Assembly: GCA_937973635.1 (NCBI GenBank)
Contig: CALJJZ010000054.1
Coordinates: 1 to 36,715, forward strand
DNA from: an uncultured Bacillota bacterium
GTDB lineage: Bacteria; Bacillota; Dethiobacteria; DTU022; UBA8154
DNA: 36,715 bases
Direction of reading: 5' to 3'
This document shows, piece by piece, positions 7,482-28,815 of this stretch (position 1 is its first letter; the number at the start of each line of letters is the position of its first letter). A program made the translations under genes and the position numbers. Below the pieces are notes generated by a model. It made no database searches, was not told the origin of the DNA, and saw only the letters and a program-made list of their open reading frames with translations.

Positions 7482-7520
7482 TAAAATTAAAAAGCTTCCA
7501 TCCCCTAGGGACGGAAGCTT
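7482..7520 (-). terminator. T-box regulated intrinsic terminator of the aro operon
   Basis: The minus strand forms a stem from AAGCTTCCGTCCC and GGGGATGGAAGCTT with a very short loop, followed by TTTTTAATTTT. Its 5' arm contains the CCGTCCCT that pairs with the T-box sequence in the antiterminator, so the two structures are mutually exclusive. Confidence 0.92.
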
Positions 7521-8041
7521 ATACTTCACGCGGTACCACCCTGGTTGGGCACACAGTGCCCCCCTCATTAGAGGGTACGGACTCAAATCCTGCATCCGTC
7601 CCCCAAACGATCATTGCCGTCAAGCAGCAGTGGCGCCAGGTACGGACCGGTTTTTCCAGCCTTATACCCCCTTCCTTTTAACGGTGGAAGTTTCCGTCAA
7701 AGCCTACTTGCCGGCAAGGCAACACCGGCTTTCGGTTTGCTCCTCAGGAGTGTATTTCAGTAACTCCGGGGTACCGGGTTGCACCAACCCCCGGCTCTCT
7801 TAAACCCCGCCGGTTACTTACTCCTCTCCCTCATCGCTTTGCTTTATTTCCAGTTAAGCGAAGCGCTCGCATCGCCGGTTATAACAATTTTTTGCCTTCC
7901 AGGGCTGCTTCAGCCCGCGACTCCAGAGGGAACTTCACCCTCCTGTTATCCCGGCAGGCTTTCAGCCCATGGCCTCCCGTCTCTGAAGGAAACATTGGCG
8001 GGTTACTTTCCTCTTTCCTTGTCTTGTGCAATTAAAATTTG
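7482..8041 (-). promoter_or_regulatory. T-box leader RNA with two specifier stems (Phe UUC and Tyr UAC) ahead of aroF
   Basis: The leader is about 560 nt. The T-box sequence AACCAGGGTGGTACCGCG reads on the minus strand at 7546-7529 and is followed by CCGTCCCT, its antiterminator partner. Upstream are two separate Stem I modules. Module 1 (about 7923-8016) has AGAGG/CCTCT lower stem, AGTA loop-E strand, a CAGAGA motif, and GAAG followed by TTC (7932-7930). Module 2 (about 7746-7825) has AGGAG/CTCCT, AGTA, AGAGAG, and GAAA followed by TAC (7754-7752). Only one antiterminator/terminator is visible. Uncharged tRNA-Phe and tRNA-Tyr should be the ligands. T-box identity is certain; the two-stem reading is my own folding. 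Confidence 0.93.
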
Positions 8042-9737: not shown

Positions 9738-9775
9738 GAAAAAGCCCCTTGCCCCAAATAAGGGCGAGAGGCTTC
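9738..9775 (-). terminator. T-box regulated terminator upstream of the trpF homologue
   Basis: On the minus strand GCCTCTCGCCC pairs with GGGCAAGGGGC (two mismatches) around a short loop, followed by TTTTTCTATT. The 5' arm includes CGCCCTT, which can instead pair with the T-box sequence. Confidence 0.88.
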
Positions 9776-10079
9776 CTTTCGCGGTGCCACCTTAATTGCC
9801 GGCACAAAAAGAACCGACATCTCTTCCAGGTACGGCCCCATCAATGATCAAACAAAGCGCATCATTTCATGGGCGATACCCTGAACTCTGTTAACGGCGT
9901 TCACTCCGGCAACAGCTACTTGGCCTTTAAAGCCGTTCGCCATGCAATTCCCGAGTCCATTCGCTCTCTGCGCCCGGGCCGGGCTCGCACCTTCCCCGGC
10001 TCTCTGTGCCGCCGCTGAAGAGTTACTAGTCTCGTTCATCATTATTTGCCTGTTCGGTTTTGCCTGTTTGCTGTAATTG
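9738..10079 (-). promoter_or_regulatory. T-box leader RNA with Trp (UGG) specifier ahead of the trpF homologue
   Basis: The T-box sequence AAGGTGGCACCGCG reads on the minus strand across 9793-9780. Stem I lies at about 9952-10034 with a CGAG/CTCG lower stem, the AGTA loop-E strand, CAGAGAGCC in the apical arm, and GAA followed directly by TGG (9959-9957) and A. The specifier therefore reads Trp, which agrees with the downstream gene family. A regulated terminator follows at 9738-9775. Confidence 0.9.
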
Positions 10080-10112
10080 CCTTCATTTATAGCGCATTTT
10101 TGCCTGTTTGTC
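10043..10112 (-). repeat. Three short direct repeats around the trpF-homologue promoter
   Basis: CAAACAGGCA occurs exactly twice on the minus strand (10110-10101 and 10070-10061), 40 bp apart, and CGAACAGGCA once more at 10056-10047. The first copy begins inside the -35 box and fills the promoter spacer; the others lie in the early transcript. They could be protein-binding sites or chance repeats. Confidence 0.5.
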
Positions 10113-10114
10113 AA
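10086..10114 (-). promoter_or_regulatory. Sigma-A type promoter of the trpF homologue
   Basis: On the minus strand TTGACA (10114-10109) and TATAAA (10091-10086) are exactly 17 bp apart. The start site should be near 10079. Confidence 0.88.
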
Positions 10115-10158
10115 TACTCTGGGCAAAGGCTTTCACGCTTCTACCCTTAACTTAAAAC

Positions 10159-10929
10159 TTAGACCTCCTGCCATATTTTTTGCAGGACATGTTTTGAATG
10201 CAGGACGTACTCTTTGTCCCGTGAGAATATTTCCAGGGTAATCGTCCCGTCATATATTTTTTTCAAATAAGCAAGGAGCTCGCGCCAGTCGATATTGCCG
10301 GCGCCAAGGGGCAGGTGCAGGTCCCTGTGCCCGTCATTGTCGTGCAGGTGGATATGCTCCAGCCGCGCCCTGAAAAACTGCAGGTAATCGAGGGGTTTTC
10401 GCCCCAGCAGGTTGAGATGCCCGATATCGGCGTGGAAACCTAGCTTTTTGTTGGCGCTCAAAATCTTGTGGATGTTCTCCTTGGTGCAGCGCCGTGTGTC
10501 CAGGGATTCATAGACAATCATTATGCCAAGGGGGGCGGCGTATTCGGTAATTTCCCCCAGCGCTTCAAGCTGGTACTTAATCCCCTCCAGGTCGCTGAAC
10601 AAGCCGGAAGGCCAGTTGGCGTGGACTGTGACTTTGGGTGTCTCCAGTTCGGCGAATACCTGCAGGTAGCCCTGTACCAGCTGCACGGCGGCCCGGCGCA
10701 GGCTTTTATGCTCCGAGCCCAGGGGCAGGTTCCAGGCCGTATGGCCGACGCTGGACAAGGCATAAGCTGCCAGGGCATTTTTAATTTTCTTTATCTCCAG
10801 TTTTTCCGGCACATTTCTGTCCGGTTCCAGGAACAGATCCACGAAGTCAAAGCCGTTTTCGCCAATCCACCTGATTTCTTCCAGAATATCCCGGCGTGGA
10901 TGCGTGGGGAAGCCGATCTTCAAGCGCAA
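10159..10929 (-). CDS. Sugar phosphate isomerase/epimerase-like TIM barrel protein
   Basis: The 256-residue protein belongs to the xylose-isomerase-like TIM barrel family (AP endonuclease 2 fold). Visible metal-ligand candidates follow the family order: His in VTVHANWP, Glu in IVYESLDT, Asp and His in GFHADIGHLN, His in HIHLHDNDG, the DLHLPLGAGNIDW segment, and Glu in TLEIFS. Members isomerise or epimerise sugars, inosose or hydroxypyruvate; the substrate here is not predictable. The TTG at 10929 sits very close to AAGGGGG; a TTG two codons later (10923) has better spacing. It is 30 bp after the M24 gene and ends the cluster. A promoter-dense T-box region follows. Confidence 0.8.
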   Translation of the reverse strand: MRLKIGFPTHPRRDILEEIRWIGENGFDFVDLFLEPDRNVPEKLEIKKIKNALAAYALSSVGHTAWNLPLGSEHKSLRRAAVQLVQGYLQVFAELETPKVTVHANWPSGLFSDLEGIKYQLEALGEITEYAAPLGIMIVYESLDTRRCTKENIHKILSANKKLGFHADIGHLNLLGRKPLDYLQFFRARLEHIHLHDNDGHRDLHLPLGAGNIDWRELLAYLKKIYDGTITLEIFSRDKEYVLHSKHVLQKIWQEV

Positions 10930-10959
10930 CTACCCCCTTACCGGAGCTCAGCCTCCGGC

Positions 10960-12162
10960 CTAAACATAAATGATCCCTTCCTCAAACACGGTCAGGGCCT
11001 GCGGACCGCTTGCGGTCATCACATAAGTGTTTTCCAGGCCCATGGCACCGTCCGCGAAGCAAAACTTGGGCTCCAGGGCGAAAACCATCCCTTCCTCCAG
11101 GGGGATCTCAAAACCAGGCGCGAAGACGGGAAGCTCGTCCAGCTCTATGCCCACGCCGTGGCCGATAAAAGTCACAGGGTCGGGAAAACCCAAAAAATGC
11201 CCGGCAAAGGGGCTCTGCCCCGCCATCTCCATGGCCCGCTCATAAAGCCTGCTGCAGGCTACGCCGGGACGGGCCATCTTCTCCATCTCCTTGAGTATTT
11301 CCACCGCCAGGGCATGGGCGGCGGCCAGGTGGTGCGGCAGCTTCCCCGGGCAAAAAACCCTGGTCTGGTCCAGCATATAACCGTCCTGGATATAGCTGTA
11401 GTCTATTAGTACCGGCTCGTCCCTGTTAATCACCTTGGTATAGGAGCCCTGGGCAAAAGCGGGGCTGACCCCTTTGCCGCCTACGGACCCGTCAAAGTAG
11501 CTGGGGTCGGTGTTACCGCCCGAGAGGAGGTGAACGTAAAAGAGGTCCTGGTTAAAGCCCCGCACCCGCATTACCCCGGCATGGCCGTGCCGTCGGGAAA
11601 GCTCCAGGATCTTGGCGGACATCTCCAGCTCGGTCATACCCGCGCGCAGGTTATCCCGGATAAAAGCAAAAACCAGCCCGTGAAAGCTGCCGATCTCCCG
11701 CAGTATCTCCACTTCATAAGGCGATTTGACCATACGCACAGTTCGAACAAGGGCACTGAGATCGACTATTTCAGCTTCCTTAAAAAGCTTCTGGTAATAC
11801 AGGTACTGGTTGGCCGGCAGCACATCCAGCTCAAAGCCCAGCCTCTTTAAGGAGCCGTAACCATAGGCATGCAAAACCGCGCCTATTTCTTTCAAGCTTT
11901 CCAGCCCGATGATCCGCTCTCCCTCAAGGGAGGACTCCAGCCTCGCCCGCTCCAGGTTTTTTTTAACCATCAGTAGAGGTTTACCCTGTGCCGGGACAAA
12001 AAGGTGGGCGCGCTGCACTGTCCCCGTAAAGTAAAAGAGGTCGGCATTCTGGACAATGACCGCCCCGTCAATGTTCTGCTGCTTCAACCCTTCCTGCAGC
12101 TTCGTAATCCTTTGGTCCAGCTCAGCTTTCGGTGTATACCGCAACAGCAATCTCCCTCCCAT
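10960..12162 (-). CDS. M24 family metallopeptidase (Xaa-Pro dipeptidase / creatinase fold)
   Basis: The 400-residue protein has a creatinase-type N-terminal domain (about 1-145) and a pita-bread catalytic domain. All five dinuclear metal ligands of M24 peptidases are visible: D254 and D265 in the segment VLIDYSYIQDGYMLDQTRV, H335 in FIGHGVGIE, E364 in FALEPKF and E377 in GLENTYVMT. The family includes Xaa-Pro dipeptidases, metal-free creatinase and DMSP lyase DddP; the full metal set favours a metal-dependent hydrolase. The ATG at 12162 has a poor ribosome site, whereas GGGAGGGAG lies correctly before a TTG at 12144, so the true protein may be six residues shorter. It lies in the MttB cluster, 77 bp after the carbamoyltransferase-like gene. 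Confidence 0.85.
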   Translation of the reverse strand: MGGRLLLRYTPKAELDQRITKLQEGLKQQNIDGAVIVQNADLFYFTGTVQRAHLFVPAQGKPLLMVKKNLERARLESSLEGERIIGLESLKEIGAVLHAYGYGSLKRLGFELDVLPANQYLYYQKLFKEAEIVDLSALVRTVRMVKSPYEVEILREIGSFHGLVFAFIRDNLRAGMTELEMSAKILELSRRHGHAGVMRVRGFNQDLFYVHLLSGGNTDPSYFDGSVGGKGVSPAFAQGSYTKVINRDEPVLIDYSYIQDGYMLDQTRVFCPGKLPHHLAAAHALAVEILKEMEKMARPGVACSRLYERAMEMAGQSPFAGHFLGFPDPVTFIGHGVGIELDELPVFAPGFEIPLEEGMVFALEPKFCFADGAMGLENTYVMTASGPQALTVFEEGIIYV

Positions 12163-12239
12163 GCAGCAATCTCTTGGCTGTCATCATTGCCAAATATCTG
12201 CCTTTAAGCTTACAAGATCGCACCGGCGCGGGTAAAGGG

Positions 12240-13361
12240 TTATTTCTCCTTCCCCGTTTCCAGAAAAGATGACCCCTCTGCGGCGCCCAATCGGAGGATC
12301 TCCTCCGCCACCCCGAAAATCATGGCCAGCAGGGCCGCCCTGATCCACATACCGTTCCTGACCTGGCGCCAGTACACCGCCCGGGGGTCGTTGTCGATCT
12401 CCGGGGAGATCTCCTGCCGGCGGGGCAGCGGGTGCATAATCACGGCATGGGGCTGCAGGAGGCCGATGTTTTCCGGGGTGATGGAGTAATCCTGAATATT
12501 AATCGTCTTTTTCTCCCCGCCTTCCCGTTCGTCCCATTCATCCTGCAGGCGCGTCATATAGACGGCATCGGCCACGGGCAGCACGCTCCTAAAATCCTCC
12601 GTCAACGTATAGGGAACCCCGTGCCGGTCCAGGTAGGAGAGGATATCGGCGCCGATCTGCAGCTCCCGGGGCGCTACAAAGTACTGTTTAACCCCTGTAA
12701 ACCTGGTAAGGAGCGAAGCAAGGGAACGGACAGTCCGCCCCCTTAAAAGGTCACCCACAAAGGCAATGGTTTTCCCGTCCACGCCGCCTTTGTCCTGAAA
12801 AGAGTGCATCAGGGTATAAACATCAAGGAGAGCCTGGGTAGGGTGCTGGTCTTTCCCCGAACCGCCGTTAATTACCGGCACAGGCCTGTTGGAGTTGTTG
12901 AGCACCTGGGCGATGTAGCTGGCAAAATCTGCCTTGTAATGGCGCATGATAATCACGTCATAATATGAGGAAAAGGTACGAACCGTGTCCGCCTCAGATT
13001 CCCCCTTTACCTCGGAAGAGGTGCTCGTATCCCTCACGTCCGCCGTTTTCATCCCCAAGATCTGGCAGGCGGATTGGAAAGACAAAAAGGTCCGCGTTGA
13101 CGGCTGGACAAAATAGAGCATCGCCCTCTTATGGCTCAATAAGGAAGCAAGGCGGTCCGCCCCGGCTTTGCTTTTGCTGATCAGTCTGATGGTGGTGGCC
13201 AGCGCGCTTATCTCCTCTAAAAATTTCCGGTCATATTGTTCGGTACTGAGACAGTGAAACACCCGGGAAGCCATAAAAGAGGACACACCCTTTCTTATTA
13301 TTTTGTCTTCATTTCCTGACCGGCAATGATTACGCTTTTGTCTTTTGTCTATTCTAAGCAT
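12240..13361 (-). CDS. Aspartate/ornithine carbamoyltransferase family protein (PyrB-like)
   Basis: The family transfers a carbamoyl group from carbamoyl phosphate to an amine, normally aspartate or ornithine. Motifs present (numbering from 13361): PSTRT at about 87-91 (carbamoyl phosphate), SSEVKGESEADT supplying the mobile lysine loop, HPTQALLD at 173-180, FVGDLLRGRTVRSL, and HPLPR at 310-314, which is the aspartate-transferase form of that motif. No regulatory chain or other pyr gene is nearby. The ATG at 13361 has GGAGG with ideal spacing and gives a 29-residue basic extension; an ATG at 13274 fits the usual family N-terminus but has a weak site. The amine acceptor may not be aspartate, given its location in a methyltransferase cluster. 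Confidence 0.85.
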   Translation of the reverse strand: MLRIDKRQKRNHCRSGNEDKIIRKGVSSFMASRVFHCLSTEQYDRKFLEEISALATTIRLISKSKAGADRLASLLSHKRAMLYFVQPSTRTFLSFQSACQILGMKTADVRDTSTSSEVKGESEADTVRTFSSYYDVIIMRHYKADFASYIAQVLNNSNRPVPVINGGSGKDQHPTQALLDVYTLMHSFQDKGGVDGKTIAFVGDLLRGRTVRSLASLLTRFTGVKQYFVAPRELQIGADILSYLDRHGVPYTLTEDFRSVLPVADAVYMTRLQDEWDEREGGEKKTINIQDYSITPENIGLLQPHAVIMHPLPRRQEISPEIDNDPRAVYWRQVRNGMWIRAALLAMIFGVAEEILRLGAAEGSSFLETGKEK

Positions 13362-13417
13362 TTTTTGGCCTCCGGGCAATAGTTTTCCTTGAAAGGAGAA
13401 AAATAAATCGGCCCGCT

Positions 13418-14347
13418 TTAGCGAGCAAAGTGGCCCCGGCCGTTTTTGAAAAGGATGCGTTTTAATTCACGGCAGGTAAAATAGGGGTCGTCATTTTTAA
13501 GATAAGGCAATAAAATTTTCTTCTGCCGCAGGAGCTCGGAGGATAGTTGTGCTTCTATTTGGTCCGGTTTATAGAGGGCAGCTTTACTGATAATCCGGCC
13601 AAAGGGATTGACGATCTCGCTGCCGCCCCAAAAACGGTAAACGGCGCCGGCATCCTCACCCCTTTCTGCGGCGCAGCAACAGGGATCCGGCAAACTGCTT
13701 TGATCCCGGCCGGCCAGCGACTCTTCGCCTACCCGGTTGGCACAGATGCCATAGATGCCAAAAATCCGGGAATAGAAAGTATTGATCACGCCCCAGGTTT
13801 CCCTGTTGCTGAATTCCGTTCCCATGGAACCACGGGAAGAATTGACAATAGTAACGAAGACATCAGCTTTTTGGGTAATGCCGAGGTAGGGCAAAGACGG
13901 GTGCCACATATCATTACAGATAAATACGGCCATATGGTACCTGTGCAATCTGAAGGTACGGATCCGTTTGCCCGTGGAAAATATCTTGCCTTCTTCAAAA
14001 ACACCATAGTTGGGCAGGTTGAGCTTGCGATAGGCAAAAAGTATTTCTCCGTCCACTGCTACCAGCGCTGAGTTGTAAAAATTCATAGAACGCGATTCTT
14101 CAATAAACCCTACAATAGCGGCTGTCCCCCTGGAAGCGGCTGCCAGGGCTTTAATTTCGGCTGAGTCCAGCCGCAGGGCGGCTTCATGGTAACGTTTACC
14201 TACGAAATAGCCCGTTAAAGCCAGTTCAGGAAAAACTACCAGCTGGGACCCTTTTTCCCGGGCATGATGGATCTTTGTAATCACTTCTTCGAGATTGCCC
14301 TGGACGTCCAGCAGCCGCGGCGCCGTTTGACAGATCGTAACCTTCAA
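13418..14347 (-). CDS. Carbon-nitrogen hydrolase (nitrilase superfamily amidase)
   Basis: The 309-residue protein carries the nitrilase-superfamily catalytic triad: E41 in FPELALTGY, K108 in YRKLNLPNY and C144 in VFICNDMWHP. It hydrolyses an amide, carbamoyl or nitrile bond through a thioester; family members include N-carbamoyl amino acid amidases, omega-amidases and the glutaminase domain of NAD synthetase. An insertion with three consecutive cysteines (about residues 216-240) follows the core. The start is a TTG at 14347 with GGGGAGGA about 8 bases upstream; the ATG just before it is out of frame and stops after two codons. It lies 32 bp after the asparagine-synthetase-like gene, so an ammonia- or carbamoyl-linked partnership is possible. 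Confidence 0.85.
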   Translation of the reverse strand: MKVTICQTAPRLLDVQGNLEEVITKIHHAREKGSQLVVFPELALTGYFVGKRYHEAALRLDSAEIKALAAASRGTAAIVGFIEESRSMNFYNSALVAVDGEILFAYRKLNLPNYGVFEEGKIFSTGKRIRTFRLHRYHMAVFICNDMWHPSLPYLGITQKADVFVTIVNSSRGSMGTEFSNRETWGVINTFYSRIFGIYGICANRVGEESLAGRDQSSLPDPCCCAAERGEDAGAVYRFWGGSEIVNPFGRIISKAALYKPDQIEAQLSSELLRQKKILLPYLKNDDPYFTCRELKRILFKNGRGHFAR

Positions 14348-14379
14348 AACATGTTCCTCCCCGCCTAAAATAACAGCGT

Positions 14380-15837
14380 TTACTTGAAAGGATCCCAGCG
14401 GGCGGTAAGCTCCTCATACGCACTGGGAAATTGTTCCTGAAAAAGCCGGTAAAAATAGAGCTCTTTGGGAGACTGCAGGGAGATGCCGCTGCTGCTTGCA
14501 GGTGTCTGCTTCAGCTCTTTTTCTCCGATATTGTCGGGAATAACCCTTTCCAGCTGGTCATCTACGCCCACACCCCGGGAAAACCTCATCTTGGGGCGGT
14601 CTGCAATCTCCCGGGGCAATATGTCCCGGAAAGCTTCCCGCAGGATCCATTTCTCTACCGCTTTTTTTTCTCCATGCACTTTAAATTCCAGGGGGAGGAG
14701 ATTGCTCAGCGCCACTACCGCCGGGTGCAGAAAGGGGGCATAGTATTCGATACTGTTCGACATCCAGCCCCGGTCAAGCCTGCGCAGGGCCGTATTGTAA
14801 GCTATATCAACCAATTTTCTGGCTACTTTTTCCTTTTCCTCCGCATCGGCAATATCCTGCAGCTCCCTGAAATAGCCACCAAAAAGTTCATCGGCTCCCT
14901 CGCCCACCAGCACGCCGTTTACATGCCCTGCAGCAAGGCGCGCCGTATAGTAGTTGGCAATAAATCCCGCAATGCAGTCTTCATCAAAGGATTCCAGGTA
15001 CCACACCGCTTTGGGAATTATTGCTTTTATATCCTCCAAAGTTATTTCATAGACGTGGTGCTCTACCCCCAGCTCCGCCGCCAGCAACCTGGCGTACTGC
15101 AGATCTTCACCGGGATGATCTGCCAAAGTAGCGGTAAAAGCCTTTAACTCTGGATTGTAACGGCAGGCAATGGCCAGAATAATAGAACTGTCCAGCCCGC
15201 CGCTCAAAGCCACCCCGCCGATTTCCCCGTTTCCCTGAAAAAGGGCGTCTTCCACCGCCTTAAAGATCACTTCCCGCACCACCCTTTGCGCCTCCTCCAG
15301 GCCGCTCCAGGGAGGGAGCTCCACGGGGACCTCTGCAAAGGGCCTGCACCCCTCCAGGGTAGAGTAGTAATGTCCCGGCGGTAGCTCCTGCACATAAGGG
15401 GCAAACCCTTTCAGCGCCTTCGCTTCCGAAGCGAAGTAAAACTCCCCCCAGGGGGACTGGTAATAAACCAGCGGGCGGGCGCCCACATGGTCCCGGGCAA
15501 TAACCCATTCTGCGTCGTCTGCAATGGCACAGGCATAGCTCCCGCCGGTGTTGGAGAACGCTGCTTTACCATGGCGCAAGTACTGCTCCCGCAAGCGGGC
15601 AGTACCGGCAATGCCGCACCCGTCGGTATCGGGCAGCAATGCCCCGTCCATAATTACATAAGGAGCATTTTCTCCGCTCATCTCCTCCATGTTCGCTCCC
15701 GCATAGGCAATGGCGCCAGAGCGGAGCCTCCGCGTTATCGGGGGAGCCTCCGCTCCCCGGTGCCTGATTACTCCCATCATCTGCCTGACCTTTTCCAGGG
15801 CCTCCCCTTTACCCCTATAACCAGCCAGACCTGCCAT
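14380..15837 (-). CDS. Asparagine synthetase (AsnB) family protein without the glutaminase cysteine
   Basis: The 485-residue protein has the two-domain AsnB layout. The N-terminal class II amidotransferase-like domain begins MAGLAGYRG: the position of the essential Cys2 (normally MCGI) is Ala, so it should not hydrolyse glutamine. Remnant features such as IRHRG and the FASEAKALKGF segment remain. The C-terminal ATP pyrophosphatase domain looks intact, with SGGLDSS at 212-218 and GEGADELFGGY at 312-322. It may use free ammonia, or another amine as in beta-lactam synthetase-type relatives, to make an amide from an AMP-activated acid. The ATG at 15837 has AGGAGG about 7 bases upstream; an upstream in-frame start overlaps that site. 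It lies 14 bp after MttB-1. Confidence 0.85.
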   Translation of the reverse strand: MAGLAGYRGKGEALEKVRQMMGVIRHRGAEAPPITRRLRSGAIAYAGANMEEMSGENAPYVIMDGALLPDTDGCGIAGTARLREQYLRHGKAAFSNTGGSYACAIADDAEWVIARDHVGARPLVYYQSPWGEFYFASEAKALKGFAPYVQELPPGHYYSTLEGCRPFAEVPVELPPWSGLEEAQRVVREVIFKAVEDALFQGNGEIGGVALSGGLDSSIILAIACRYNPELKAFTATLADHPGEDLQYARLLAAELGVEHHVYEITLEDIKAIIPKAVWYLESFDEDCIAGFIANYYTARLAAGHVNGVLVGEGADELFGGYFRELQDIADAEEKEKVARKLVDIAYNTALRRLDRGWMSNSIEYYAPFLHPAVVALSNLLPLEFKVHGEKKAVEKWILREAFRDILPREIADRPKMRFSRGVGVDDQLERVIPDNIGEKELKQTPASSSGISLQSPKELYFYRLFQEQFPSAYEELTARWDPFK

Positions 15838-15851
15838 AATATCGCCTCCTG

Positions 15852-17324
15852 TCAAAAATTTTTCTCCGCAAGGCGCCCCTGCGCCAACCTTTCCTCAACG
15901 ACGCTTAAATCGAGGGGCGCTTCGATCTTCTTTCCCCGGTAAAGGTATCCCTCCCGCAGGCCTTTACGGGCCGCCTTTATAAAAACGGTGCTGCTCCCCT
16001 GGTGTACCGCCTTTTCAATAATTTCAAGCTGCTTCTCCATATATGCTTCTTCGTAGGGCTCCAGGGCGTTTTCCACATGCCGGATACGGGCAAGCAGTTC
16101 CGCTTCCGTCTTTTCCTCTGGCTGGACCCCAAAGCAGCTCAGCACTTCCAGCGCGGCATTCAAAACCAGCTGTGATGCCTCCAGGGAAGGGTTTTTACGG
16201 AACTTCTCTTTCACGAGCTTAAGGGCATAGTCATCAAGGACATACTGGTAATAAGCCACAGAGACAACCTGCTCAAGCATACCCAGGGCGCTGTTGATAT
16301 ACTGTCCGCCGCATGCCGCCTCATAGACCCAGCTGAGCACTTTTTCGCTGAGTCCCTGGGCCGTAGGTTCTGCTTCATCGGAGACCCCTGCCGTACCACA
16401 ACAGGGAAGGTTGTAAAAACGGCAGATTTGCGCCGCCAGGGCCAGCCGCCGGATACTATCCGGCTGGCACCAGCGCGGCGAAGCATCGCTGTGGAGGTTG
16501 GCAGTGACAGGGATGCCCCGGTACAGGACCCTGGCGCCGGGCCGGGCGCTATTGGCCAGCACAAGGCCAAATAACAGTTCAGCATTGAGCTGCAGCAGCT
16601 CTCCCACTTCAGAAAATGGTGCCGTAGTCCCGCCCTGGGGACAACTGGAAATAGCCACGGGGATATCCTTTTGCACAAGGGCAAGCAGTTTCTCCCCTGC
16701 AGAGCTGTCCATAGTCAGGGGGCTGGAAACGAGGCTGACAATAAAAGAAAGATATGCCGGGTCGCCAACAATCTCCAGCACACTTTCAAGGCGCTCCGGC
16801 TTAAACAGGTTGGCAAGATTCATCGGTTTTGTACAGAACTGGCGGAAAATCTTCGCCTTGGCCACGTCTTTCTGGTCGTCGGGGAGATCGCATTCCACGG
16901 GACGTGTAATAAAATCAACCTGGTGCAGCTGATTGCAGAGGGCAACGATCTTCCGCAGGTCTTCCGTCCCTGCCGGCTTTTTAGCCCATCCATTGGAAGT
17001 CCGTTGTACAAGATAGAGCGCCTGGCCGCCGGTACCAAACTTTACCCGGTTATCTGCGCCGTTGATTGTAAAACTGTAAGCCGGATCCGGTGCGCCGAAG
17101 TGGATACTCCTGGCAGACTGGGCCAAGGCTCCTTCCACCAGCTCCCGGGAGAGCAGTATCCTCTCTCCTCGCCGCTGTGCTCCCCTTTCCAGGAGCATTT
17201 TGGCTATGCCTGTATGGGTTACCCTGACGCCTACCCGGGATAAAAGCTCGCAGCTTCCTGCGTGGAGCAAGTGCATTTCAGCTGAAGAAAGCATCTTGAG
17301 CTGCTGTTTTGCTGCGACGATCAT
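15852..17324 (-). CDS. Trimethylamine methyltransferase (MttB) family protein, copy 1 (non-pyrrolysine)
   Basis: The 490-residue protein belongs to the MttB family (TIM-barrel methyltransferases that move a methyl group from a quaternary or tertiary amine to a corrinoid protein). Recognisable segments are FGTGGQALYLV near the N-terminal third, SSCPQGGTTAPF, AELLFGLVLANSARPGARV, and the barrel segment CCGTAGVSDEAEPTAQG. There is no in-frame amber codon, so it is of the pyrrolysine-free type, whose members include glycine betaine, proline betaine, carnitine and butyrobetaine demethylases. Its start shares ATGA with the corrinoid gene stop, implying translational coupling. The C-terminal region (about 390-490) differs from copy 3. 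Substrate unknown. Confidence 0.9.
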   Translation of the reverse strand: MIVAAKQQLKMLSSAEMHLLHAGSCELLSRVGVRVTHTGIAKMLLERGAQRRGERILLSRELVEGALAQSARSIHFGAPDPAYSFTINGADNRVKFGTGGQALYLVQRTSNGWAKKPAGTEDLRKIVALCNQLHQVDFITRPVECDLPDDQKDVAKAKIFRQFCTKPMNLANLFKPERLESVLEIVGDPAYLSFIVSLVSSPLTMDSSAGEKLLALVQKDIPVAISSCPQGGTTAPFSEVGELLQLNAELLFGLVLANSARPGARVLYRGIPVTANLHSDASPRWCQPDSIRRLALAAQICRFYNLPCCGTAGVSDEAEPTAQGLSEKVLSWVYEAACGGQYINSALGMLEQVVSVAYYQYVLDDYALKLVKEKFRKNPSLEASQLVLNAALEVLSCFGVQPEEKTEAELLARIRHVENALEPYEEAYMEKQLEIIEKAVHQGSSTVFIKAARKGLREGYLYRGKKIEAPLDLSVVEERLAQGRLAEKNF

Positions 17325-18004
17325 GATACTTTACTCACTTCTTCCAGTTTGTCGAGGGCCTCCCTTACATCGCGGCAATAATAATCAGCACCGATTTTAT
17401 CCGCAAACTCCTGGGAGGTAGGCGCCCCGCCGATAAAAACCTTAAGCCCGGGGATATTTTCTTCCTTGATCAGCCTGACCACATGCTCCATCTCGACCAT
17501 CGTGGAGGTCAAAAGGGCGGATAGGCCCACGTAGTCAGGCTTGTAGGCCCTGATTTCCTGCAAAATAGTCGCCGCCGGCACATCGATGCCCAGGTCCTTA
17601 ACCTGATAGCCTGCACCTTTGAGCATGGTGGCGACAATATTTTTGCCGATATCGTGCAAATCGCCTTCAACAGTGGCAATGAGGAACTTTCCTTTAGTGG
17701 AATGGCTGACGGCCTGAAGTGCGGGGCCGATTATCTCCATAGCTTTACCCACACATTCGGCACTGGCAAGCATATCAGCCAGGTTGTATTCCTCCGCTTC
17801 AAAGAGCTGTCCTACCTTTCCCATGGCTACTCTAAAACTTTCAACCAGGACTCCCGGTTCAATCTCCGCCTTCAGGGCCTCTTCCAGCAGCTCCAGGGTT
17901 CCCGGAGTCCCTTCCATCGTCCCGTCAAAACCTTCATCGTCGGCATCAAGATGCCCCATGACAATACTGTGTTCCAACTTCGCCAACAACTCATCTTTAG
18001 ACAT
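17321..18004 (-). CDS. Corrinoid protein of a methyltransferase system (MttC/MtbC-like)
   Basis: This 227-residue protein carries the cobalamin on which MttB-type enzymes load the methyl group. The N-terminal helical cap (about 1-100) contains MGKVGQLFEAEEYNLADML. The Rossmann-like B12 domain has DLHDIGKNI at 115-123, giving the D-x-H-x-x-G motif with H117 as lower cobalt ligand, then VGLSALLTSTM and FIGGAPTSQEFADKIGAD. The N-terminal cap has a short acidic insertion around residues 20-38 compared with typical MttC. AAGGAG lies upstream of the ATG at 18004. It is the only corrinoid protein in the cluster and so must serve all three MttB copies, unless others exist elsewhere. Confidence 0.95.
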   Translation of the reverse strand: MSKDELLAKLEHSIVMGHLDADDEGFDGTMEGTPGTLELLEEALKAEIEPGVLVESFRVAMGKVGQLFEAEEYNLADMLASAECVGKAMEIIGPALQAVSHSTKGKFLIATVEGDLHDIGKNIVATMLKGAGYQVKDLGIDVPAATILQEIRAYKPDYVGLSALLTSTMVEMEHVVRLIKEENIPGLKVFIGGAPTSQEFADKIGADYYCRDVREALDKLEEVSKVS

Positions 18005-18025
18005 GGTTAAAAATCTCCTTATCTT

Positions 18026-19543
18026 TTATTTGCTTACGAGGCCGGGTATTTCTTTAAAGACCCGGCTGATCGTATCCGCGGGCAGCGCTTTTGTCTCCGC
18101 GGCAAGGCAATGCTCCAGTTTCGCCTGAGCCCGGAGCAAAACCTGATCCTCTTCGCCGTCTGAGGAAAATTCGTAGGTGCTGGAAACCACTTTCCGGCGC
18201 AGCTGTCTCCTGATCCCCCGGATGAACATACCCGAACCTTTTACATTTTTGTCGATTTCCCGGACTGCCGCCGCGATCTCTTCCCGGTCAAAATCAGGGG
18301 CACGCAACAGCTCCTTGACCAGAGCAATGGAAGCGTTGTCAAGGACGGCTTGCAGCGGCGAAAAAATATTGGTACCGTCTAGCAGGCCGAAAGCATAATG
18401 GATATAATGTGCTCCTGCAGCGGCCACCTCTTTATAGGAGAACATTTTTTCCACCGTCGCCTGGATCCCCGGGCGATTGGCATCGCCCACGCCTGCTGAA
18501 GCATAGCAGGGTATGCCATAAAAGCGGGCCAGCTGCACGCATGCCATGGCATAGTGACTGAACTCCGCTGTGCCATAGCAGTCTTCAAGCGTGTCAAGCC
18601 TTGCCCGGACGGGGACAGCTCCGTACAAAACGGGGGCGCCGGGATTGGCAAACTGGGCCAGGGCAATTCCGGCCAGGATCTCGGCGTTGGTCTGGATGGT
18701 TATCCCCTCTTCCTGAATCGGCGCCGTTACCCCGCCCTGGGGGGACGTTGATATGACCATGGGGATCTTTTCCCGGGCTATGGCGAGCACTTTTTCGGAA
18801 CTGTCCGAAACCATGAAAAGGGGGCTCCTGACAGGGCATACGATAAAAGAGAAGGGCAGATAGGGCTGCTCCTCGGCGATGATCCTGGCCAGGGAAATTA
18901 CCGCAGGCAGGGCCTCCAGCTCGCTGAGTCCGCCCTGCACATGCTTTGTCGTATGGCACAGAGAAGTGAAAAAAACATTTACGTCCTTGTTGGCCTTGTT
19001 TATCTCCGGGTCCTGGATATTGACGTTCCGGATAAAAAAATCCGCATGTTCCAGCTGCTCCACGAGGCGAGCCGCATCGGCCAGTGCGGCCAGAGACCCC
19101 GGTTCTTCCTGGTACACAGGGTGGTGCAAGACCCTGTCTGCGTCAGCCGTACTGACAAATTTATCCATCCGGGAACGTAAATAGATGTTCGCCTCCGCGC
19201 CGGTGCCAAAATAAACGTGGGGCAGGTCCGCCTGCAGGAGCAGCGTATGGCGGGGATCCCGGGCACCGAGGACAACTGTGGAGGGAACGCCAGAGAGGGC
19301 TTTCTGCAACAACCTTTCCGGGAAATATACTTTCCACATTTTTTGTTTGTCGTCTCCCGCCTCCTCAACTCTGCATCCCGCAGCATGGTAAACCCCGGCC
19401 GCTTTTGCTCCGGCGCAACAGAGACCCGTTTCCGCCAGCAGCTTCTTTGAGGCGCCGTCTATGGCCCGGGTCTGCTCCGGGGTTAAACGCTCTACAGGCC
19501 GGACAGGCAGGGCTTTTTTGTGCTGTATACCTGTTTTTTCCAT
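18026..19543 (-). CDS. Trimethylamine methyltransferase (MttB) family protein, copy 2 (non-pyrrolysine)
   Basis: This 505-residue MttB homologue has YFGTGAEANIYLRSRMDKF, STSPQGGVTAPI, AEILAGIALAQFANPGAPV, and CYASAGVGDANRPGIQATVE, paralleling copy 1 in the barrel core. It is the longest of the three and has an extended C-terminal helical part. No amber codon interrupts it. Copies 1 and 2 share the PQGG-T-AP motif, where copy 3 has LCGGTAPM, so 1 and 2 look more alike. The ATG at 19543 overlaps the stop of the MtrH-like gene (TAATG), with AAGGAG upstream. Substrate unknown; separate specificities for related methylamines are the simplest reading of three copies. Confidence 0.9.
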   Translation of the reverse strand: MEKTGIQHKKALPVRPVERLTPEQTRAIDGASKKLLAETGLCCAGAKAAGVYHAAGCRVEEAGDDKQKMWKVYFPERLLQKALSGVPSTVVLGARDPRHTLLLQADLPHVYFGTGAEANIYLRSRMDKFVSTADADRVLHHPVYQEEPGSLAALADAARLVEQLEHADFFIRNVNIQDPEINKANKDVNVFFTSLCHTTKHVQGGLSELEALPAVISLARIIAEEQPYLPFSFIVCPVRSPLFMVSDSSEKVLAIAREKIPMVISTSPQGGVTAPIQEEGITIQTNAEILAGIALAQFANPGAPVLYGAVPVRARLDTLEDCYGTAEFSHYAMACVQLARFYGIPCYASAGVGDANRPGIQATVEKMFSYKEVAAAGAHYIHYAFGLLDGTNIFSPLQAVLDNASIALVKELLRAPDFDREEIAAAVREIDKNVKGSGMFIRGIRRQLRRKVVSSTYEFSSDGEEDQVLLRAQAKLEHCLAAETKALPADTISRVFKEIPGLVSK

Positions 19544-20370
19544 TACCCCTGCTCTCCTTTCTCGAACAGCCCGCTCCTCACAGCTCTAGAGTACCTGCGG
19601 CAGAATTTGTCTTTTCCCGCCAGCAGGTTCCCCATGATAATGGCCCGTTGCACGCTTTTGGAGGTGGGATCGCAAATTACCGCAGAAAGGCCAAAGCAGA
19701 TAGCTGTAGTAAGGAAGGCCCCGTTGATTAAAAAACGTTTCTTCAGACCGTGGGAAATATTGGTAAGGCCCATTGCTGTCCGGGCTTCCGGGAACAGCTC
19801 GCCGATCCCGCGTATGGTCTGTAAAGTTACCATAGCCTGGACGGCGTCAGTGGACAGCGGCATGACCAGGGGATCAAAATAAAGGAGATCGGCAGCCAGC
19901 CCCCTTTTTTCCGCTTCTTTAAAGATTGCCTCACAAATAGCCAGGCGCCTGGCAGCGTCAGGGGGAATGCCCTCTTTGTCCATGGCCAGAGCGATGAGGG
20001 GCACCCGGTGCCGGCAGGCCAGCTCCAGGATCGCCAGGGAGGCCTCATCAAGTTCACCGGTTATGGAATTAAGCATCCACGGCCTGCGCCCGTCTAGATG
20101 TTTAGCAGCATATTTGAGCACCTGCGGGCTTGCCGCATCCAGGGCCAGCTTCTTGCTTGTACACTCCAGGGCCAGATCGATAAGCCAGCAGAGATCTTCT
20201 TTTTCCTGCGCCAGCCCACCGGAACCGCTTCCTGCGTTGAGGTCGATATAATGCGCGCCCGCAGCATCCTGCATCATAATCTCCTCTTGGATTGCCTTTG
20301 CATCTTTCTGCTCAAGGGCAGCCCTGATCCGCTTTCTTGTGGCATTAACCCGTTCTCCGATGACAATCAT
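19543..20370 (-). CDS. Methyltetrahydrofolate:corrinoid methyltransferase (MtrH/MtgA/AcsE-like, pterin-binding)
   Basis: The 275-residue protein belongs to the pterin-binding TIM barrel family. In non-methanogens with MttB-type systems this role (as in MtgA for glycine betaine) moves the methyl group from the corrinoid protein to tetrahydrofolate. Visible features are VIGERVNATRKRI at the N-terminus, QDAAGAHYIDLNAGSGSG with the pterin-binding Asp-Leu-Asn, LALDAASPQVL, MLNSITGE, LIALAMDKEGIP, and GLTNISHGLKKR. The ATG at 20370 has AAGGAG five bases upstream; an upstream ATG at 20388 would overlap copy 3 more. It is 2 bp after MttB-3 and overlaps MttB-2 by one base. Confidence 0.92.
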   Translation of the reverse strand: MIVIGERVNATRKRIRAALEQKDAKAIQEEIMMQDAAGAHYIDLNAGSGSGGLAQEKEDLCWLIDLALECTSKKLALDAASPQVLKYAAKHLDGRRPWMLNSITGELDEASLAILELACRHRVPLIALAMDKEGIPPDAARRLAICEAIFKEAEKRGLAADLLYFDPLVMPLSTDAVQAMVTLQTIRGIGELFPEARTAMGLTNISHGLKKRFLINGAFLTTAICFGLSAVICDPTSKSVQRAIIMGNLLAGKDKFCRRYSRAVRSGLFEKGEQG

Positions 20371-20372
20371 AA

Positions 20373-21842
20373 TTACTCCTTTCCACACTTCACCCCGGCA
20401 GGGAGATAGCTCTTCTCCTGCTCGCCCAGGATAGCCTTGACAATTTCATGGGCCCGCCGGGACGCCGTAGTAGCCCCCTCCGCAAGCCAAAGGGGACGTT
20501 GGTGGCGGTCGCTGAGCCCAGGTTGGTAATGTTCCGTACGCAGAAATTTCCTTGTATGCCTGCCGGTGATAAAGTTGCCGCCGGGGCCGGCTGCAATAAT
20601 CTCCTCCAGACAGAGAGACTCAGCAGAAACGTTAATCCCTTTAATCGCCCGCTTTACCATGCCGATAATCTCATTATCAATTATCAACTTCTCTAAACTT
20701 ACCGTACAGGCAAATTCCATCAGCCCGGCGGCATCATGGATAAAATCAGCACCGGACAAACCCACAAGCATATTCGTCAGGGCCGCCTCATAGCCGCATT
20801 GGGCGTCCAGCGTCTTGGAGTCGCTGATCCCGGCCGTACCATAGTAGGGAAGCCCGTAGTAACGGGCCAGCTGCGCCGCTGCGGCATTGATTAGGCCGCT
20901 TTCCACCGGGGCACCCAGGTAACGCATCGTGCGCATATCCATGACAGAAGCAACGCAACCGTAGATTACTGGAGTACCGGGATTAATTAGCTGCGCCAAC
21001 ATAATATGAATAAGGGAATCACAGTTCTGGACAACCAGCGTGCCGGCCAACGACATCGGTGCGGTGCCGCCGCATAAAGGCTCCACCGGTACAGCCAGCG
21101 GCAGGCCTTCTCTGGCGATTTTAATTAAAAACGACCCATACTTTTTGTCGAGGCGCAAAGGGCTGAGGCCGCAAGTGATAAAAGAAATAAAGGGCCGCCG
21201 GCGCAATGCCGCCTCCGAACCGGCAATATCTTCAGCCAGCCCGATTACTTCGTCTATCCCCCCGGCGGTGTAAACCCCGCCCATGACGTGCTTGTCCGTA
21301 TAGGTAAGCCCCGCCCTAAACCGATGTATATCCACTTCTTCAACACTAAGGTCGTGGGGATAAGTAGGCAAAAGGCAGATATCTAGATGCTCCATGCGGT
21401 CAACGACCCTGATTACCCGCTCTAGGTCCTTTAAAGTGGCGGGCCTGCTTTCTTTCTGCCCGTAATCCAGGATATTTAATGCCGTGCCGCCGGTACCGAA
21501 ATAAACTTCGCCTGATCCAAGGACACAGTCATGCTTTTCTTCCCTGCCATAGAGGGTTACCGTAGAAGGGACCAGGGAGAGCAATTCCCTGACAGTGTTT
21601 TCCTCTACTTTAATCAGCCGTTTGCCCTCATCAATGGTTTTAGCTACCTTTTTAAAAAAGGCAAAGGCCTCCGGCTCATAAACTTCGAACCCGGCTTCAG
21701 AGAGCACCTCCATGCTTGCCCGGTCAATCTGCAAAAGATCGTCCCGGTCCAGGGGTTTGTATCGAGGGACACGGCCACCTTCAACCGCCGCCTGCCGCTC
21801 CCCTTCCGGCACGGCTAACCCTTTATTTTTAATCCCTTTCAC
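20373..21842 (-). CDS. Trimethylamine methyltransferase (MttB) family protein, copy 3 (non-pyrrolysine)
   Basis: First gene of the cluster, 489 residues. It looks the most like classical MttB homologues: YFGTGGTALNILDY, the FITCGLSPLRLDKKYGSFL segment, EPLCGGTAPMSLAGTLVVQN, YYGTAGISDSKTLDAQCGYE, and the C-terminal GNFITGRHTRKFLRTEHYQP. The frame is open throughout, so there is no pyrrolysine codon. The start is a GTG at 21842 with AAGGATG about 10 bases upstream. An imperfect dyad and AT-rich promoter-like sequence lie about 80-105 bp upstream. Confidence 0.92.
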   Translation of the reverse strand: MKGIKNKGLAVPEGERQAAVEGGRVPRYKPLDRDDLLQIDRASMEVLSEAGFEVYEPEAFAFFKKVAKTIDEGKRLIKVEENTVRELLSLVPSTVTLYGREEKHDCVLGSGEVYFGTGGTALNILDYGQKESRPATLKDLERVIRVVDRMEHLDICLLPTYPHDLSVEEVDIHRFRAGLTYTDKHVMGGVYTAGGIDEVIGLAEDIAGSEAALRRRPFISFITCGLSPLRLDKKYGSFLIKIAREGLPLAVPVEPLCGGTAPMSLAGTLVVQNCDSLIHIMLAQLINPGTPVIYGCVASVMDMRTMRYLGAPVESGLINAAAAQLARYYGLPYYGTAGISDSKTLDAQCGYEAALTNMLVGLSGADFIHDAAGLMEFACTVSLEKLIIDNEIIGMVKRAIKGINVSAESLCLEEIIAAGPGGNFITGRHTRKFLRTEHYQPGLSDRHQRPLWLAEGATTASRRAHEIVKAILGEQEKSYLPAGVKCGKE

Positions 21843-27995: not shown

Positions 27996-28815
27996 ATTCC
28001 CTGTACTTATCCGTCAAGCCGCTGGCGGGAACCGTCTCCCCAAGCTGGTCCACTGCGGCCCGGGCAAAATCGTCGCGGGAAAAGAGCTGTTCCAGTTTCC
28101 GTTCATCATTGCGGGAGAGGTTCATTCCCTCCCCGTCGAAAAACCGCAAGCAGACGCTGTCTTTTGCTTCCGCCGGCACATAGAGGTAGATCCCCCCTAG
28201 GCCCCGTATAAGTCCACGGCAAAACGGGAGATGGCACAGGTATCTCTCCCAGTTCATATACTTCAAGCCCGGTAGAGATGAGGCCAAGCCTAACCGCATC
28301 TTTCAAGAAGCTGGCAGCTGCTGCCCCTGCATGGCCCACCACGACCCTTTTCCCTCGCCCCAGCATGGAACCAAAAGCCGCACCCAGGCTCGCCGCCGCT
28401 TCTACGCTGCATTCGCCGTTAAGCCTACCCTTGACGCCATCAAAGCCAAAAAGGAAGCGGCAGGCCCTGCTACCCCAAACAAGGTTGGAATGCAGCTTTA
28501 TACCGCTTTCTACATGCTTGTAGGGCCAGACCTTAACTCCCGGCCTGACCACGCTTCCTGTACCGAGGATACTTTTATCTGCCATGACGGCGCCTTCATA
28601 AACTACGGCCCGTTCTTCCAGCTGCGCCTTTTGCCCCAGGATACCCCCTTTGAGGGCTGCCCCAGCAGCAATGTTGGCCCCATCCCAGACGATGTCCCTC
28701 TTTACCACAGCACCAGGGCCGATATGATTATGGGCGCCGATAACAGCATAGTCGCCCACCACAGCCCCGCTAGAGATGCGGGTACCGGCACCTATAAATA
28801 TAGGGGGCAGCAGGC
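27967..28815 (-). pseudogene. Remnant of a nucleotidyltransferase-phosphomannomutase fusion protein (ManC/ManB-like)
   Basis: The readable part begins in hexapeptide repeats of a left-handed beta-helix (PPIFIGAGTRISSGAVVGDY, HIGPGAVV, SILGTGSVVRPGVKVWP) and continues into a phosphohexomutase-like domain (GKRVVVGHAG, GLEVYELGEIPVP, then GGIYLYVPAE and LRFFDGEGMNLSRNDERKLE). The N-terminal nucleotidyltransferase domain is missing. Two single-base losses break the frame: restoring one C after GTGCC near 28232 gives PVPISRFAVDLYGA, and one C near 28199 gives GALGGIYLY. The 3' end runs into the truncated ABC ATPase. No function is expected. Confidence 0.8.

What the first reader, a model, noticed from the sequence alone, without database searches (positions are those of the whole stretch)
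10159..21842. Ten-gene corrinoid methyltransferase cluster with amide/carbamoyl chemistry: candidate undescribed catabolic pathway
Three MttB-family enzymes, one corrinoid protein and one MtrH-like enzyme form a tightly coupled methyl-transfer core (gaps of 21 bp or less, some overlapping). The same strand continues into an AsnB-like amide synthetase, nitrilase-family amidase, PyrB-like carbamoyltransferase, M24 hydrolase and isomerase-like barrel. Known MttB systems (trimethylamine, glycine betaine, proline betaine, carnitine) do not need such partners. A hypothesis is growth on an N-methylated amide, ureido or guanidino compound (creatine-like) or a methylated amino acid peptide: methyl groups to tetrahydrofolate, then removal or transfer of amino or carbamoyl groups.
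Basis: partly seen in the sequence, partly recalled or inferred. Interest (0 to 1): 0.75.

Follow-up and report, generated by a model that had tools for sequence, protein, structure and literature searches.

The report
Soda-lake demethylation operon with altered asparagine synthetase
A conserved eight-gene set from soda-lake bacteria probably strips methyl groups off betaine-like compounds for growth, and always carries an asparagine-synthetase-like enzyme with lost glutaminase residues and an altered substrate site, a partner not reported for such systems in the papers searched.

Summary
The ten genes are present as described, on the minus strand. Relatives split them. A core MttB2-MttC-MttB3-AsnB* recurs in every sufficiently long locus found (about 15 genomes: Dethiobacteria, two Spirochaetaceae bins and one dubious archaeal bin, many from soda lakes). 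MtrH and MttB1 usually precede it; a nitrilase and/or TIM-barrel gene often follows. Two high-quality genomes carry the set intact; their sizes match 'Ca. Contubernalis alkaliaceticus' and Dethiobacter alkaliphilus. PyrB and M24 do not belong: PyrB is the only aspartate carbamoyltransferase found in this genome, and PyrB and M24 orthologues in relatives lie elsewhere. So no carbamoyl chemistry is needed and a creatine-like substrate is not supported. Best reading: corrinoid N-demethylation of a betaine-type osmolyte into tetrahydrofolate and the Wood-Ljungdahl pathway. The odd part is AsnB*. Its catalytic cysteine is Ala or Ser in all orthologues, a glutamine-binding loop is deleted and the aspartate-site Arg is gone, while the ATP site is intact. 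I propose it amidates the substrate or an intermediate, as choline kinase MthK primes choline; the nitrilase would hydrolyse that amide or supply ammonia. The module is well supported by homology and synteny; substrate and AsnB* role are inferred.

The parts
20373..21842 (-). MttB1: non-pyrrolysine MttB-superfamily methyltransferase, closest of the three to MtgB/MttB
   Evidence: PF06253 318 bits; PDB hits MttB 255 bits and MtgB 245 bits; Ile at the Pyl334 position, FGTG motif kept
19543..20388 (-). MtrH/MtgA-like methylcorrinoid:tetrahydrofolate methyltransferase (start codon uncertain)
   Evidence: Pterin_bind; PRK07535 233 bits, below its 259 cut-off
18026..19543 (-). MttB2: divergent non-pyrrolysine MttB paralogue
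   Evidence: PF06253 167 bits; own clade, support 0.98, outside MttB1/MtgB/MttB; upstream of MttC in every locus with upstream sequence
17321..18004 (-). MttC: corrinoid protein with DLHDIGKN cobalamin-binding motif
   Evidence: PF02310/PF02607; pyl_corrinoid 159 bits, below cut-off
15852..17324 (-). MttB3: second divergent non-pyrrolysine MttB paralogue
   Evidence: PF06253 134 bits; model matches MttB 7xcl Z 29.6, rmsd 3.8, 393 aligned, and MtgB 9yce Z 28.0 (mean pLDDT 67); orthologues 58-76% identical
14380..15837 (-). AsnB*: asparagine-synthetase-like amide synthetase with degenerate glutaminase domain (ATG at 15837 after an upstream TTG at 15855)
   Evidence: Asn_synthase 177 bits; Cys1 is Ala/Ser in all orthologues, NGE loop deleted, SGGLDSS kept, Asp-site Arg lost; model matches AsnB 1ct9 Z 32.9, rmsd 4.2, 449 aligned
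13418..14347 (-). Nit: nitrilase-superfamily amidohydrolase related to the NAD synthetase glutaminase domain
   Evidence: CN_hydrolase; best PDB hit glutamine-dependent NAD+ synthetase 5kha, 83 bits, shared KxNLPNYGVFxE segment; next to AsnB* in window, G001, G021, G022, G360, L039 and after TIM in G422
10159..10929 (-). TIM: AP-endonuclease-2-type TIM barrel, nearest named family CbiR but below its cut-off
   Evidence: PF01261; NF041277 CbiR 72 bits versus cut-off 105; beside the core in G002, G016, G422, G479, G480

Best explanation
An accessory catabolic module of Dethiobacteria. MttB1, MttB2 and MttB3 move methyl groups from an N-methylated, probably betaine-type compatible solute to the cobalt of one corrinoid protein (MttC). 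[quoted passage not shown] AsnB* cannot use glutamine as an ordinary class II amidotransferase does and, by its altered site, probably does not act on aspartate. It uses ATP to adenylate a carboxylate of the substrate or of a partly demethylated intermediate and forms an amide with free ammonia or another amine. The nitrilase then hydrolyses that amide or supplies the ammonia. The TIM barrel is accessory. PyrB and M24 are inserted neighbours. Shown here: gene set, synteny, intact and lost motifs, acetyl-CoA synthase gene in the hosts. Inferred from families: methyl transfer and direction. Inferred with little direct evidence: betaine class of substrate, amide step, roles of Nit and TIM.
For: Core order conserved. 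In the class scan, strong AsnB* matches (over 800 bits) occur in 12 of 98 genomes, and in all 12 the gene is next to MttB3 or in a locus that has it. G422 holds eight genes in one run with gaps of about 50 bp or less. All three MttBs lack pyrrolysine but keep the FGTG corrinoid-contact motif (motif from PMC9842639). Methyl-THF fate: acetyl-CoA synthase gene in all 7 genomes tested, metF inside the operon in L040/L043, CooS downstream in L042/L093. Betaine-type substrate: ProV/OpuAC-type transporter genes start about 370 bp after Nit in G360; related MttB2-MttC clusters of family f3 enclose a betaine-type ABC transporter. AsnB* motifs. Precedent for ATP priming before demethylation: MthK (PMC12155760).
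Against: No substrate, expression or biochemistry. The transporter is adjacent in only one module locus, and haloalkaliphiles need betaine uptake for osmotic balance anyway. Nit is missing beside AsnB* in several loci, so neither of its proposed roles is universal. Glycine betaine itself is demethylated elsewhere without an amide step. Priming with AMP-forming chemistry costs two ATP equivalents unless recycled. No report that D. alkaliphilus grows on betaines was met in the papers read.
Confidence: 0.45

Rival explanations
1. Plain stepwise betaine demethylation, MttB1 then MttB2 then MttB3 removing three methyl groups in turn. AsnB* and Nit only handle the nitrogen of the end product.
For: Three MttBs share one MttC and one MtrH-like enzyme. 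Stepwise glycine betaine to dimethylglycine to sarcosine is the supported model in strain DCMF, whose cluster also has three MttBs and one MTII (PMC9768040). No GrdB-type reductase gene was found in G000 or G422, which fits full demethylation.
Against: AsnB* has lost the aspartate-site Arg and the glutaminase residues, odd for plain nitrogen assimilation. It is at least as tightly linked to MttB3 as MtrH or MttB1 is.
Confidence: 0.25
2. AsnB*, Nit and the CbiR-like TIM barrel tailor the corrinoid cofactor (side-chain amide or nucleotide-loop exchange) so that it suits these methyltransferases.
For: TIM is nearest to the cobamide-remodelling enzyme CbiR among named families; two amide-bond enzymes are linked to a corrinoid system.
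Against: TIM is below the CbiR cut-off (72 versus 105 bits). The published CbiR subset was selected for cobamide-gene neighbours (PMC7733943), which the loci examined here do not show. TIM and Nit are each absent from some loci.
Confidence: 0.1
3. A biosynthetic module that makes or modifies an N-methylated amide or osmolyte, AsnB* forming the amide or lactam as beta-lactam synthetase does.
For: Beta-lactam synthetase and CarA are solved AsnB relatives that do not use glutamine (my knowledge) and match the AsnB* model (Z about 29 and 23). The related f3 cluster contains a SAM methyltransferase and L037 an adenosylhomocysteinase gene.
Against: AsnB* keeps the AsnB GEGADE Glu, where beta-lactam synthetase is recalled to have a catalytic Tyr (my knowledge). 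Characterised MttB enzymes are used for demethylation. AsnB* is closer to AsnB in sequence (118 versus 71 bits).
Confidence: 0.12
4. One reading: growth on a creatine-like, ureido or carbamoyl compound using PyrB and M24.
For: PyrB and M24 lie between Nit and TIM on the same strand.
Against: PyrB is the only ATCase detected in a 96% complete genome. PyrB and M24 orthologues in relatives are away from the module and no other module locus has them.
Confidence: 0.03

Closest known systems
Glycine betaine MtgB-MtgC-MtgA systems (Desulfitobacterium, Acetobacterium, strain DCMF)
   Same: Non-pyrrolysine MttB enzyme, corrinoid protein and methyl-THF methyltransferase; DCMF's cluster also has three MttBs and one MTII (PMC9768040)
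   Different: None in the papers read carries an AsnB-like synthetase or nitrilase; MttB2 and MttB3 are separate divergent clades
Choline MthK-MthB-MthC-MthA system of Eubacterium limosum
   Same: ATP-dependent priming enzyme encoded with an MttB system; methyl goes to THF (PMC12155760)
   Different: The primer is a kinase acting on an alcohol; here it would be an acyl-adenylating amide synthetase, and the function is unproven
Asparagine synthetase B (1ct9) and beta-lactam synthetase (1jgt)
   Same: Same two-domain fold (Z 32.9 and 28.8), intact SGGLDSS ATP loop and GEGADE motif
   Different: Catalytic Cys is Ala/Ser, glutamine-binding loop deleted, Thr-Thr-x-Arg aspartate motif replaced by D-C-x-[A/V/T/S/F]
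Pyrrolysine MttB trimethylamine methyltransferase
   Same: Fold (Z 29.6) and FGTG corrinoid contact
   Different: No pyrrolysine: Ile or Val at that position; scores below the TIGR02369 cut-off
f3 MttB2-MttC-SAM methyltransferase-OpuC clusters in the same order (L119-L121)
   Same: MttB2-like 45% and MttC-like about 46% identical, with an MttB1-like gene nearby
   Different: SAM methyltransferase and betaine-type transporter in place of MttB3, AsnB* and MtrH

Membership tests
MttB superfamily (PF06253) | MTTB domain over curated cut-off | tested here: met
   318, 167 and 134 bits versus cut-off 25
MttB superfamily (PF06253) | Corrinoid-contact Gly-Thr motif (Gly110-Thr111 of MttB) | tested here: met
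   FGTG in MttB1, MttB2, MttB3 of window, G360 and G422
Pyrrolysine trimethylamine methyltransferase (TIGR02369) | In-frame pyrrolysine at position 334 and equivalog score over 525 | tested here: not met
   Ile/Val at that column, ORFs uninterrupted; 416, 196, 140 bits
Glycine betaine MtgBCA system | MttB enzyme, corrinoid protein and methyl-THF methyltransferase encoded together | tested here: met
   MttB1-MtrH-MttB2-MttC-MttB3 contiguous
Glycine betaine MtgBCA system | Activity on glycine betaine | not testable with these tools
   No enzyme assay possible
Asparagine synthetase (glutamine-hydrolysing) | N-terminal catalytic Cys and glutamine-binding residues | tested here: not met
   Ala/Ser at Cys1 in all orthologues; NGEIYN segment deleted
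Asparagine synthetase (glutamine-hydrolysing) | ATP loop SGGLDSS and RPK-FS-GVG segment | tested here: met
   Conserved in the AsnB* alignment
Asparagine synthetase (glutamine-hydrolysing) | Aspartate-site Thr-Thr-x-Arg motif (role from my knowledge) | tested here: not met
   ETYDVTTIRA of 1ct9 aligns with ES[FY]D[EQ]DCI[AVTSF]G
Asparagine synthetase (glutamine-hydrolysing) | NCBIfam equivalog cut-off (TIGR01536 267, NF006949 499) | tested here: not met
   185 and 254 bits
CbiR cobamide remodelling phosphodiesterase | NF041277 score over 105 | tested here: not met
   72 bits
CbiR cobamide remodelling phosphodiesterase | Hydrolysis of cobamides | not testable with these tools
   Needs an in vitro assay
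Aspartate carbamoyltransferase (PyrB, 12240-13379) | TIGR00670 over cut-off and only ATCase of the genome | tested here: met
   262 versus 237 bits; the other OTCace_N hit is ArgF beside ArgD

The most novel reading that the evidence does not exclude
AsnB* turns the carboxylate of N-methyl amino acids (for example dimethylglycine or sarcosine) into an amide, which makes the tertiary or secondary amine a usable methyl donor for MttB2 and MttB3. This would be an ATP-paid alternative to pyrrolysine for removing the second and third methyl groups, with Nit recycling the amide.
Probability: 0.12. Interest if true: 0.85.

Novelty: new variant of a known kind. Interest (0 to 1): 0.55.

Why it matters
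[quoted passage not shown] An amide synthetase obligately encoded with two new MttB clades points to a new activation step or substrate. It can be tested if the two high-quality genomes are what their sizes suggest, because D. alkaliphilus AHT1 is in culture. It also adds a likely methylotrophic capacity to soda-lake Dethiobacteria.

Tried and rejected
Carbamoyl or creatine pathway: rejected by synteny and by PyrB being the only ATCase detected. Ordinary asparagine synthesis by AsnB*: rejected on motifs, and the genome holds another full-length AsnB with the N-terminal Cys at C35. Pyrrolysine trimethylamine enzymes: rejected. CbiR identity of TIM: below cut-off. orf92 (9848-10126) as an eleventh gene: overlaps a T-box leader. 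Chance neighbourhood: rejected by conserved order. Coupling to the upstream acyl-CoA synthetase/ECH genes: a terminator-like hairpin lies between and no relative shows the link, apart from a 31% identical ACS homologue in L028. A structure-based substrate pocket comparison was not possible because model coordinates are not released. Searches of the open-access library for MttB together with asparagine synthase found no paper describing the combination. The promoter scan found 17 sites against 8.8 expected and cannot settle operon ends.
Full report
Observation. Upstream, a terminator-like hairpin at 22351-22330 follows the acyl-CoA synthetase gene. Downstream, a T-box leader at 10048-9757 opens the TrpF-like gene's operon, so the set is bounded on both sides. 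The six genes from MttB1 to AsnB* overlap or nearly touch; gaps widen after Nit.

Which genes belong together. A whole-genome search with MttB3 in 60 relatives gave a clean break between orthologues (62-76% identity) and other MttBs (36% or less). A scan of 84,980 species genomes gave 12 loci, all from MAGs and many from one soda-lake sediment series, including two Spirochaetaceae bins and one short Woesearchaeota-binned contig that may be misbinned. A phylum search added G360 and G422 and the class search added G478, G479 and G480 (G478 and G480 appear to be the L044 and L037 contigs). In every locus long enough, MttB2-MttC-MttB3 is followed by AsnB*; only in L040 and L043 does a metF gene stand between. 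MtrH precedes MttB2 in most loci and MttB1 precedes MtrH in most of those. L037, L038 and others instead have a 46% identical MttB1-like gene after AsnB*. Nit follows AsnB* in the window, G001, G021, G022 and G360, in L039, and after TIM in G422. TIM is beside the core in G002, G016, G422, G479 and G480.

Which genes do not. PyrB and M24 occur with the core only in the window. The genome's other OTCace_N gene is ArgF beside ArgD, so the window gene is the only ATCase detected. PyrB orthologues (62-78%) and M24 orthologues (65-71%) in relatives lie in unrelated surroundings.

Named hosts. G360's contig is 3,558,951 bp; the published 'Ca. Contubernalis alkaliaceticus' chromosome is 3,558,949 bp (PMC10608574). 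G422 (3.1 Mb, about 30 contigs, rounded) resembles Dethiobacter alkaliphilus AHT1 (3.12 Mb, 34 contigs; PMC5609068). These identities are inferences from size. In G422 the order is MttB1-MtrH-MttB2-MttC-MttB3-AsnB*-TIM-Nit with gaps of about 50 bp or less.

The methyltransferases. No pyrrolysine: the position is Ile in MttB1 and Val in MttB2 and MttB3. The Gly-Thr corrinoid contact described for MttB (PMC9842639) is kept. MttB2 and MttB3 form separate, supported clades outside the MttB1/MtgB/MttB part of the midpoint-rooted tree. The MttB3 model matches MttB and MtgB structures (Z 29.6 and 28.0), though its mean confidence is modest (pLDDT 67).

AsnB*. The model (mean pLDDT 81) matches asparagine synthetase B over nearly its full length (Z 32.9). 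In all orthologues the N-terminal Cys is Ala or Ser, the NGEIYN segment is deleted and the SGGLDSS loop is intact. The aspartate-site motif ETYDVTTIRA of 1ct9 is replaced by ES[FY]D[EQ]DCI[AVTSF]G. That this motif binds aspartate is my own knowledge. Other AsnB-like proteins in the class that lack the Cys keep the Arg (family f3) or replace it with Gln, Asn or His (G006, G012, G018, G422, G028). AsnB* is thus a conserved, probably active ATP-dependent amide synthetase of unknown acid, not a glutamine-dependent asparagine synthetase.

Pathway fit. All seven genomes tested hold an acetyl-CoA synthase gene, metF sits inside two operons, and a CODH cluster follows the module in G021/G022. A ProV/OpuAC-type transporter follows Nit in G360. 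A sister cluster type in family f3 places MttB2-like and MttC-like genes with a SAM methyltransferase, an OpuC-type transporter and an MttB1-like gene. Both contexts point to betaine-type osmolytes, abundant in hypersaline sediments, but haloalkaliphiles import these anyway.

Mechanism. The nearest precedent for an extra ATP enzyme is MthK, which phosphorylates choline before MthB demethylates it (PMC12155760). By analogy AsnB* would prime a carboxylate as an amide and Nit would remove the amide or supply ammonia. This is inference. The main rivals are plain stepwise demethylation with AsnB* in nitrogen handling, cofactor tailoring, and biosynthesis. No open-access paper found joins an MttB system with an asparagine-synthetase-like gene; subscription journals were not searchable.

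Verdict. New variant of a known kind: an MttB/MttC/MtrH demethylation operon with two new MttB clades and an obligate degenerate-glutaminase AsnB partner. Module and gene boundary are well supported; substrate and AsnB* role remain open.

Noticed in passing
window 7504-7843 (-) and 9757-10048 (-): Two T-box leaders, upstream of DAHP synthase and of the TrpF-like gene; the second overlaps the mechanical ORF 9848-10126, which is therefore probably not a gene.
   Followed up: partly
L119:5871-15725, L120:4483-14272, L121:4130-13988: Family f3 clusters: MttB2-like, MttC-like, a 415-aa SAM methyltransferase of no named family, an OpuC-type betaine transporter, a CBS-domain protein and an MttB1-like gene.
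   Followed up: partly
L157:7504-8931 (-) in G422: Second AsnB-like protein without the catalytic Cys (Ser) and without the aspartate-site Arg (Asn), divergent from a betaine-type ABC transporter operon; a wider family of degenerate-glutaminase AsnB proteins exists in the class.
   Followed up: partly
L151:4880-6409 (-) in G479: One open reading frame appears to fuse an MtrH-like and a corrinoid MttC-like domain.
   Followed up: no
L090:5834-6602 in G009: TIM gene split over three frames in a 99% complete genome where no MttB3 was found, perhaps a relic of a lost module or an assembly error.
   Followed up: no
L105:273-7416 (G000:C9): Separate MttB-MttC-MtrH set in the same genome with a sodium-solute-symporter-type transporter and a sigma-54-type regulator (reading of the translations, no family search run).
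   Followed up: no
window 28106-28762 (-): Short ORF with a hexapeptide repeat and only the first domain of a phosphoglucomutase; the surrounding ORFs look broken, possibly a decayed nucleotidyltransferase/phosphomutase gene.
   Followed up: no
L040, L043 (Spirochaetaceae bins) and L039 (Woesearchaeota bin): The module in bins from other phyla: horizontal transfer or misbinning of short contigs.
   Followed up: no
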